Below are positions 13,799-42,761 of a DNA stretch of 64,000 nucleotides, one piece after another; the stretch's first letter is position 1; each line of letters starts with the position of its first letter. The stretch covers positions 1-64,000 of the forward strand of contig DAHUYQ010000006.1 of NCBI GenBank assembly GCA_027315115.1. Direction: 5' to 3'. The notes below the pieces were generated by a model. It was not told the DNA's origin. It worked only from the letters and a program-made list of their open reading frames with translations, and did not search any database. This stretch comes from Solirubrobacterales bacterium. GTDB lineage: Bacteria > Actinomycetota > Thermoleophilia > Solirubrobacterales > Solirubrobacteraceae. Position numbers and translations under genes: made by a program.

Positions 13799-14791
<993 letters not shown>

Positions 14792-14862: not shown

Positions 14863-14899
14863 AAGGGGGGCGCGGTCAATGCCGCGCCCCCCTTAATTT
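14863..14899 (+). terminator. Intrinsic terminator after mdh
   Basis: A 13-bp perfect stem (AAGGGGGGCGCGG paired with CCGCGCCCCCCTT) with a 6-nt loop is followed by AATTT. It lies 70 bp after the mdh stop and ends the icd-mdh unit. Confidence 0.85.
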
Positions 14900-14949
14900 C
14901 ATGTCAGGTCTAACCCGAAGTGCCTCAAGTAAGGCCGACGGATCGTCGG

Positions 14950-15013
14950 TTCTGCCAAGGACGCAGCGAACGTGGCGTACTCCATACGCGAGCGAGCGAA
15001 GACGCCGGCAGAA
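14950..15013. repeat. Structured intergenic element, copy A
   Basis: A conserved core (14957-15005) contains the hairpin GCGTA-CTCCA-TACGC and is closed by an outer stem TTCTGCC/GGCAGAA. A second copy with the same core but different, still complementary, stems lies at 41525-41630. Both copies sit within 30 bp of the stop of a minus-strand gene, between convergent genes. It may be a bidirectional terminator, a 3'-UTR structure or a small RNA. Confidence 0.6.
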
Positions 15014-15039
15014 GCGACGAGACTAGGCCTGCGGCGGGA

Positions 15040-15495
15040 CTAGGCCTTGGGGTGCCACCCGCGGCCCTGCTTGGCAACCTTGCCTTCCTGCTCAAGCGAG
15101 GGAAGCACGCGGTAGAGGTAGTTCTGCTTGATGCCCATCCGTGCGGCCAGCTCGGGGATGGTGATCCCGGGCTGCTCCTGGACGAACTTGAGCGCCTGCG
15201 CGGAACGGGTGCCGCTGCCCTTGCGCCTGCCGGCGCGACGACGCGGAGTGGAAGCGGCGGCGCCGCTGGGAGCCGCTGCTGCGCTGCGACGCGGGCGGCC
15301 CGGCCCGCGGCGGGTGGCCGGCGCTGCGCTCACGCGTGCGGGCGCGGGTGCGGCAGGTGCGCTGGCGCCGTTTCCGCCTACGCCCTCGAGCGCGGCGGCC
15401 GCGGCTTCGAGGCGATGAAACTCTTCGACGAGCGGCCTCAGCTCGGTCAGGCGCTCGTTGATCTCTTGGCGCTTCTCGTCAAGGAAGTCAGTCAC
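15040..15495 (-). CDS. Putative DNA-binding protein with AT-hook-like linker and C-terminal winged helix
   Basis: The 151-aa product begins with a charged, probably coiled-coil segment (residues 1-40). A Pro/Ala/Arg-rich linker follows with an AT-hook-like RRGPGRPRR. A C-terminal helix-turn-helix (residues ~100-150, ITIPELAARMGIKQNYLYRV) completes it. It resembles small nucleoid or regulatory proteins conserved in actinobacteria, but I do not recognise a named family. I chose the GTG at 15493-15495 because a GAGG lies 7 nt upstream; a longer start at 15531 is possible. Confidence 0.65.
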   Translation of the reverse strand: MTDFLDEKRQEINERLTELRPLVEEFHRLEAAAAALEGVGGNGASAPAAPAPARVSAAPATRRGPGRPRRSAAAAPSGAAASTPRRRAGRRKGSGTRSAQALKFVQEQPGITIPELAARMGIKQNYLYRVLPSLEQEGKVAKQGRGWHPKA

Positions 15496-15616
15496 GTGGG
15501 AACCTCGCTCGAATGGTTTACTTGCTGGCATTGTTACACATGCAGAGCGTTACATCACCTGATGGAGATCGTCAGCGCTCGCGATGTCACTCCGCGTCGC
15601 TTGCGCGGTGAGGCCA

Positions 15617-41524: not shown

Positions 41525-41630
41525 CCTAGACGGTCGAGAGTCAAGGAGCTCAAGGACGCAGTGAGCGTGGCGTACGGATGTACGCGAGCGAGCGAGGACG
41601 CAGAGATCCGCCGGCTATCGGCCGTCTAGG
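41525..41630. repeat. Structured intergenic element, copy B
   Basis: The core at 41552-41601 matches copy A (14957-15005) except at four transitions and in the hairpin loop. The hairpin is GCGTAC-GGAT-GTACGC. The outer closing stem CCTAGACGG/CCGTCTAGG is unrelated in sequence to copy A's but still perfectly paired. The right arm overlaps the stop codon of the minus-strand gene. Confidence 0.6.
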
Positions 41631-42255
41631 AGTCTTCGCGGATGCGGCGGATCACTATCTGGTCCTCTTCGACCCGGACCTCGACGGGCCGGTGCCCGGC
41701 CCAGTGCTCGGCGTAGACCGGGTCGTCCTGGATGGCGGGGTCGAGCCAGAGGCCGTAGCCCTCTTCGCCGTGGTCGAAGGTGCCTTCCAGGACCGCGCCA
41801 TCGCGGCCGGCGGACTTGCGGCCGCGGCCGCCGCGGCGCCCACGTCTGCGTCGTGCAGGCGCCTCGTCCTCGTCCCCCTCCCCCTCCTCCTCTTCCTCCT
41901 CCTGCTCCGCTTCTTCGGCGGCCTTCGCGCGTTTTTCGGCGGCGGTCTTCGCGCGCTTCTCCGCGGCCGCCTTCGCCTTGGCTTCCTTGGCGGCCTTCTC
42001 GCGCTCGGCCTCCTTGGCGGCGGCCTCCAGCTCGGCGGCGATCAGCGCGTCGTCCTCGGCGCGCATGTCGAAGTCCTCAGCCAGCTCGGCGCCGCCCTCG
42101 GCCGCCTCGCTCTCGTCCAGCGCGTTCTGGCGCTTGAACTCAGCGATATCCTGGCCGGAGACCTCCAGCTGGTGGGCGATCCAAGCATCGGTGCGTCCCT
42201 GACGGACCCATCCGCGGATCTGGTTTAGGTGCGGGCGCAGTGACTTGCGAGCCAT
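41626..42255 (-). CDS. Conserved Ala/Lys/Glu-rich protein with N-terminal HTH-like segment
   Basis: The 209-aa protein starts with a short helical domain ([20 protein letters not shown] then [11 protein letters not shown]) resembling a DNA-binding helix-turn-helix. A long Ala/Glu/Lys coiled region and an Arg/Gly-rich patch follow. The C terminus is a compact beta-rich domain ([20 protein letters not shown] onward). It may be nucleoid- or RNA-associated; function unknown. Confidence 0.65.
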
Positions 42256-42506: not shown

Positions 42507-42761
42507 ATGTTGGTCCTCACGCGCAAGTCCAACCAGAGCATCATGATCGGCGATGACGTCGAGGTGACCGTACTCTCCGTGATGGGGGACAAGGTGCGGA
42601 TCGGCATCCAGGCCCCGGGCGACGTGCCGGTGTTCAGGACCGAGATCTACATGGAGATCCACCGCGGCGAGCACGGGCAGGAGCAGCGCGACGAGCAGGC
42701 GCAACGGCAGGAAGTCGACGACGCGCTGCGCGAGCTGGGCGGAGGGGGCTCGGCGCAGTAG
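42507..42761 (+). CDS. csrA: Carbon storage regulator CsrA
   Basis: The 84-aa protein begins [20 protein letters not shown], the RNA-binding first strand. It continues [22 protein letters not shown], with the R-T-E block of the family. CsrA dimers bind GGA motifs in mRNA leaders and control translation. No flagellar gene or FliW partner is in the window. A 251-bp leader separates it from the divergent gene. Confidence 0.92.

What the first reader, a model, noticed from the sequence alone, without database searches (positions are those of the whole stretch)
14950..15013. A two-copy structured intergenic element with compensating stems
Copies at 14950-15013 and 41525-41630, 26.6 kb apart, share a ~50-nt core differing at only four transitions plus the hairpin loop. 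The central hairpin changes from GCGTA/TACGC to GCGTAC/GTACGC. The outer stems differ completely in sequence (TTCTGCC/GGCAGAA versus CCTAGACGG/CCGTCTAGG) but remain perfectly paired. Each lies between convergent genes, within 30 bp of the stop of the minus-strand gene, and both such genes encode putative DNA-binding proteins. This looks like a selected RNA or DNA structure and may be an undescribed 3'-UTR or terminator class.
Basis: partly seen in the sequence, partly recalled or inferred. Interest (0 to 1): 0.72.

Follow-up and report, generated by a model that had tools for sequence, protein, structure and literature searches.

The report
Hairpin repeats inserted at stop codons
The two matching hairpins belong to a large family of short, apparently mobile DNA elements in a little-studied group of bacteria; they tend to sit exactly at the stop codons of genes, appear to supply the stop codon themselves, and keep their folded shape although much of their sequence changes.

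Summary
BLAST with copy 1 finds 28 places in this genome. A covariance model from 19 copies matches 21 of 24 genus genomes and 69 of 146 family genomes. Pairing is strongly supported: 95.2% of cells paired, 26 of 34 pairs with double changes, covariation 0.528 against 0.152 shuffled. The folded strand is S (AAGGACGC...GAGGACGC): wobbles are G.T, not A.C, and S folds better than its complement in 95 of 116 copies. S mostly lies antisense at the 3' end of a gene, whose stop codon falls in an 11-nt span at the element's edge in 66 of 86 scored copies. Between rplW and rplB only 2 of 19 readable genomes carry it. In 28 of 124 cores with AGTG...CACT ends, taking the element out rejoins a stop codon in 21 of 27, five as TGATG. 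Convergent neighbours are not the rule and there is no terminator T-run. Best reading: a non-autonomous mobile hairpin inserting at T^AG/T^GA and rebuilding the stop. Movement as folded single-stranded DNA is inferred; the enzyme is unknown.

The parts
14943..15020 (+). copy 1, whole hairpin on the S strand; outer stem 14943-14956 with 15007-15020
   Evidence: ortholog L239 shares host and both flanks
14957..15005 (+). copy 1 core: loop strand AAGGACGC 14957-14964, apical hairpin 14975-14979 with 14985-14989, loop strand GAAGACGC 14998-15005
   Evidence: BLAST family of 28 places
15021..15046 (-). GACTAGGCC twice (15021-15029 and 15038-15046), 17 nt apart: probable small duplication of the host gene end, which would explain why the host stop of copy 1 is not at the stem edge
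   Evidence: L239 has the stop once, beside the element
15040..15531 (-). host gene of copy 1, small protein with a weak winged-helix match
41525..41630 (+). copy 2, whole hairpin on the S strand; outer stem 41525-41537 with 41618-41630
41552..41601 (+). copy 2 core: loop strand AAGGACGC 41552-41559, apical hairpin 41570-41575 with 41580-41585, loop strand GAGGACGC 41594-41601
41626..42255 (-). host gene of copy 2; its stop codon 41626-41628 lies in the outer stem; no Pfam match

Best explanation
The two copies belong to a family of non-autonomous mobile hairpin elements (about 80-115 nt here; 164 nt in most copies of a long form). SHOWN: a conserved internal loop (AAGGACGC opposite GAGGACGC) lies between freely varying but paired stems; S is the strand whose folding is kept; elements are present or absent at orthologous gene junctions; the protein end is unchanged where I compared it; most scored copies have the host stop at the element's edge; in a long-form subset the host T joined to the flank behind the element makes a stop codon. 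INFERRED: a trans-acting enzyme, not identified, recognises the folded S strand as single-stranded DNA by its loop, cuts beside T and inserts without a clear target duplication, and the element's first bases (AG or GA) rebuild the stop, in the manner of TnpA-REP or integron integrase on their own hairpins. Stop codons may be a real target or simply where such insertions survive. WEAKER INFERENCE: some old copies are now kept for a local role.
For: Dispersed copies; covariation 0.528 v 0.152 and 0.684 v 0.178, and 20 of 34 pairs double-changed on the BLAST-found set. Strand: G.T v A.C 126:38 and 77:21, 39:12 on A1; S folds better in 95/116 (RNA) and 99/116 (DNA), controls 59/109 and 60/109. Insertion: rplW-rplB 2 of 19; nrdJ 9 of 17 occupied or remnant with the same C-terminus. 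Stop phase: 66 of 86 within 11 nt, 12 more at -24 to -30. Rejoined stop 21 of 27, five TGATG. Head-to-tail tandem copies.
Against: No enzyme or master copy found; no insertion event observed between close strains. 19 of the 28 long-form copies have CT before and AG behind, which a TA or CTAG duplication would explain too; only the TGATG cases and one rplW comparison speak against it. All three copies of the other class that passed the filter fail the rejoin test. Only 28 of 124 cores had ends I could define this way. Copies at most shared hosts are no more alike than background. In-place compensatory change at two sites suggests function beyond mobility. The G.T bias is absent in the upper stem of A3 (17:18).
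Confidence: 0.5

Rival explanations
1. A cis-acting RNA element: S is transcribed from the convergent neighbour or as antisense RNA, and its hairpin halts or processes transcripts that run into the host gene.
For: Compensatory change in place at nrdJ and at copy 1/L239; S folding kept, S usually antisense; convergent pairs 32 of 98 classed copies against 107 of 802 background pairs.
Against: Presence/absence between relatives, decayed copies, no T-run, tandem operon positions where no S promoter is known; insertion logic unexplained.
Confidence: 0.2
2. A MITE of a DDE transposase (IS630- or IS5-like) with target TA or CTAG, whose terminal repeats happen to be long and palindromic.
For: Terminal inverted repeats; CT before and AG behind in 19 of 28 long-form copies; 329 ends of one terminal repeat type in a 4.6 Mb genome, control 2.
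Against: Terminal repeats differ wholly between subfamilies while the inner loop is conserved; TGATG joins show no duplication; strand-biased wobbles are not expected.
Confidence: 0.17
3. Integron-type attC sites (folded bottom strand at the 3' end of cassettes).
For: Folded strand antisense to the gene, hairpin at gene ends, tandem copies.
Against: Integron integrase model over its cut-off in 0 of 146 family genomes, although generic recombinases match below it in 146 of 146; hosts are core genes in place.
Confidence: 0.04
4. A bidirectional intrinsic terminator class.
For: Hairpins at 3' ends, enriched between convergent genes.
Against: No T-run; present between rplW and rplB; conserved loop and strand bias not needed.
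Confidence: 0.06

Closest known systems
REP/BIME elements with TnpA-REP (RAYT); PMC8266576 (abstract and passages seen)
   Same: Hairpin with an unpaired region in the stem, one strand recognised, found mostly behind genes, cleavage at CT beside the hairpin
   Different: REPs are 20-40 bp and have GTAG beside the hairpin; here 80-164 nt and PF01797 in 1 of 24 genus genomes
CGTC-tagged REPs; PMC3733652 (abstract, outline and passages seen)
   Same: Palindromic repeats behind genes without a dedicated transposase
   Different: 8-9 bp stems with an unpaired end tag and CCA tail; here long stems and a conserved internal loop; the paper's text has no hit for Actinobacteria or Conexibacter
Mycobacterial MIRUs; PMC12548453 (one passage seen)
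   Same: Short repeats said to be mobile and inserted at start codons with coupled -4 spacing, so that insertion costs little; tandem copies (tandem nature recalled)
   Different: MIRUs carry an ORF; here the feature is a covarying hairpin and insertion at the stop. Sequences were not compared
Integron attC sites (recalled)
   Same: Folded strand antisense to the gene, variable stems, position at the gene end
   Different: No integron integrase over cut-off, no cassettes
Bacterial MITEs (PMC2229807, search listing only)
   Same: Short non-autonomous repeats with terminal inverted repeats
   Different: Ends not conserved between subfamilies; no target duplication in TGATG cases

Membership tests
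REP/RAYT | Y1 transposase (PF01797) in the genome | tested here: not met
   1 of 24 genus genomes, 0 of 11 good ones; not tested outside the genus
REP/RAYT | 20-40 bp palindrome | tested here: not met
   about 80-115 nt and mostly 164 nt
REP/RAYT | one folded strand recognised, with a needed bulge | tested here: inconclusive
   S strand bias and conserved internal loop; recognition cannot be tested here
CGTC REP | 8-9 bp stem with unpaired CGTC at one end and CCA tail | tested here: not met
   structure against the description
Integron attC | integron integrase | tested here: not met
   0 of 146 over cut-off; none of 14 control genomes was over it either
Integron attC | conserved R boxes (recalled) | not tested
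   outer stems vary freely, boxes not searched
DDE MITE | conserved terminal repeats and a target duplication | tested here: inconclusive
   ends differ between subfamilies; duplication excluded only in the TGATG cases
MIRU | inner ORF coupled to the neighbouring gene | not tested
   only survival of the ATG in five TGATG cases was seen
Intrinsic terminator | hairpin followed by a T-run | tested here: not met
   7/121 and 4/121 against 5/121
Any Rfam family | match at the gathering score | tested here: not met
   no match over the elements in the window or in 8 loci; best at E up to 10 for copy 2 covers its flank only

The most novel reading that the evidence does not exclude
A so far undescribed class of mobile elements adapted to stop codons: a folded single strand is inserted without duplication into T^AG or T^GA, its own first bases rebuild the stop and a following ATG survives; recognition is by a conserved purine-rich internal loop while all stems drift, through an enzyme that is neither a RAYT nor an integron integrase; old copies are then kept in place for a role at gene ends.
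Probability: 0.33. Interest if true: 0.8.

Novelty: new variant of a known kind. Interest (0 to 1): 0.6.

Why it matters
It would show how a mobile element fits into gene-dense genomes by using the one codon where insertion need cost nothing, even between ribosomal protein genes. It offers a natural series of many copies in which shape is kept and sequence is free, so recognition of a folded single strand can be tested, and it points to an unknown mobilising enzyme in Thermoleophilia.

Tried and rejected
Relatives of the first host protein in genome contigs: none found, although L239 later proved to hold one. Rfam: no family. Plasmids and phages with copy 2: no match. RAYT and integron origin: not met. 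A master copy with an enzyme was sought among isolated halves and around 20 of the 329 ends in genome FR_37 and not seen; this was a part of that genome only. A CsrA role (two AGGA motifs; csrA at 42507-42761) was dropped: S would be antisense RNA, and in nine copies of another class none keeps AAGGAC (by eye). Phylum matches in families f27, f20 and f41 (L331-L334) look like other repeats by eye, and L236 (Acidobacteria, shorter gap) is not counted as a member. A test of inheritance at shared hosts was mixed: copies more alike than background in 22 of 33 comparisons for the core and 23 of 33 for the outer stem, mean differences 0.002 and 0.035; within nrdJ several pairs are clearly closer, L104 is not. 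An earlier count said 22 of 27 for the rejoined stop; the right figure is 21 of 27. Nine answered paper searches showed no description of this family; that covers this open-access library and these terms only.

Full report
What is there. Both copies are real. Reading the + strand as S, each is one long hairpin: outer stem, inner stem, an internal loop with AAGGACGC on the left and GA(A/G)GACGC on the right, an upper stem with G.A mismatches, and an apical hairpin. Copy 1 spans 14943-15020, copy 2 41525-41630. Both fold better than shuffles, the + strand more so than the - strand.

How many. BLAST gives 28 places for copy 1 and 34 for another copy in the 3.3 Mb genome. A covariance model R1 from 19 copies matches 21 of 24 genomes of the genus, 69 of 146 of the family, in 17 of 25 genera, and 33 of 396 drawn from the phylum at 90% completeness or more: 9 of the family, 5 of the same order, 11 of the same class, 8 others. 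Five of the eight belong to one family outside the class; nine copies fetched from them all have GAGAACGC on the right strand and five of nine AAGGCCGC on the left, so I take them as relatives. The other three look unrelated.

Structure. On 81 distinct genus rows 95.2% of cells pair, 26 of 34 pairs have a double change and the covariation score is 0.528 against 0.152 in shuffles, none of 500 reaching it. On 38 rows from other genera: 92.4%, 32 of 34, 0.684 against 0.178. Sliding partners by 1-3 columns removes the signal. These alignments were fitted to the model; the MAFFT alignment of 19 BLAST-found copies, on which RNAalifold chose the structure, already gave 20 of 34 pairs with double changes.

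Which strand. In S the wobble cells are G.T rather than A.C: 126 to 38 in A3 and 77 to 21 in A4, 39 to 12 in A1. In the upper stem of A3 alone there is no bias (17 to 18), in that of A4 there is (24 to 6). For 116 copies chosen by the core pattern, S has the lower folding energy in 95 (RNA) and 99 (DNA); flanking controls give 59 and 60 of 109. The pattern fixes the purine-rich core, so part of this comes from the core.

Where. With my own codon-usage gene finder, 121 matches (two places appear twice under other locus ids) are 56 tandem with S antisense, 5 tandem with S sense, 33 convergent, 3 divergent, 3 inside a predicted gene, 21 unclear. For 122 pattern-found cores in loci of 3 kb or more: 48, 15, 32, 3, plus 24 far or at a contig edge; adjacent gene pairs in the same loci are 587 tandem, 107 convergent, 108 divergent. 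Of 121 matches 86 had a well-scored host frame; the first base of its stop falls within an 11-nt span at the model's edge in 66 and 24-30 nt before the model in 12. Stops are TGA 42, TAG 40, TAA 4.

Insertion. Of 20 genomes with rplW, 19 were readable: two (G000, G020) carry an element and 17 have rplB within about 25 bases. G002 reads ...GGC TAG GAGC, G020 ...GGC T[GAGATGA...TCTC]AG GAGC, by eye. At the nrdJ end (named by recall) 17 genomes were readable; nine have an element or remnant, eight none, and the C-terminus CGNNTGCG is the same in all 17. In a long form, 28 of 124 distinct cores have ends AGTG...CACT with at least 12 of 14 pairs; 86 lack such ends, 10 pair less well, and 9 more were cut by contig ends. 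Sixteen of the 28 are exactly 164 nt. Taking the element out joins host T to AG or GA in 21 of 27 evaluable copies, five as TGATG, the overlap of stop and next start. The three copies of the other class are among the six that fail. Nineteen of 28 have CT before and AG behind on S, which a TA or CTAG duplication would give as well; the TGATG cases show none. Head-to-tail tandem copies occur.

Kept in place? Copy 1 and L239 (a Solirubrobacterales MAG) share the host gene, the flank GACGGATCGT on one side and ACGAGACTAGGCCT on the other; 5 of 14 outer stem pairs are changed on both sides and still pair. Five nrdJ copies have double changes at 11 of 34 pairs, with 10 of 170 cells unpaired. Against this, copies at most other shared hosts are no more alike than background, which fits separate insertions or great age, and decayed copies exist.

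Mechanism. One folded strand, a conserved loop with free stems, and joins beside T or CT resemble TnpA-REP, which acts on one strand, needs the bulge and cuts at CT (PMC8266576, abstract and passages), and integron integrase (recalled). Neither explains these genomes: PF01797 in 1 of 24, the integron integrase model over its cut-off in 0 of 146, with generic recombinases below it in all 146. The enzyme is unknown and no master copy was seen. The preference for stop codons may be targeting or survival; the window has 36 CTAG sites, and I did not model insertion elsewhere. MIRUs are the nearest published analogue of the insertion logic (PMC12548453, one passage), CGTC REPs the nearest palindromes without a transposase (PMC3733652, abstract and passages).

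Verdict. A real, strongly covarying family, far larger than reported, best read as a mobile hairpin adapted to stop codons. Mobility is inferred from comparison, the enzyme is missing, and a local role of retained copies is possible but unproven.

Noticed in passing
window 14865-14899: GGGGGGCGCGG...CCGCGCCCCCC followed by TTAATTT: a terminator-like hairpin behind the gene at 13805-14791 (malate dehydrogenase by recall), separate from the element.
   Followed up: no
L100-L105 and L059 (143-156 nt matches): Copies with an extra hairpin of about 30-40 nt in the apical loop, in several genus genomes.
   Followed up: partly
G000 contig ends C28 and C63 (L013, L014): Contigs end inside head-to-tail copies of about 101 bp; the copies farther from the host have right arms that do not match their left arms.
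   Followed up: partly
G146 (FR_37, JAOSKU010000001.1): 329 matches of one terminal repeat (up to 3 mismatches; control 2) in 4.6 Mb: an unusually repeat-rich genome.
   Followed up: partly
L331-L334: Other GC-rich long hairpin repeats, one in tandem, in distant Actinomycetota, hit weakly by the model.
   Followed up: no
window 42507-42761: A csrA gene (PF02599) lies about 0.9 kb from copy 2.
   Followed up: partly
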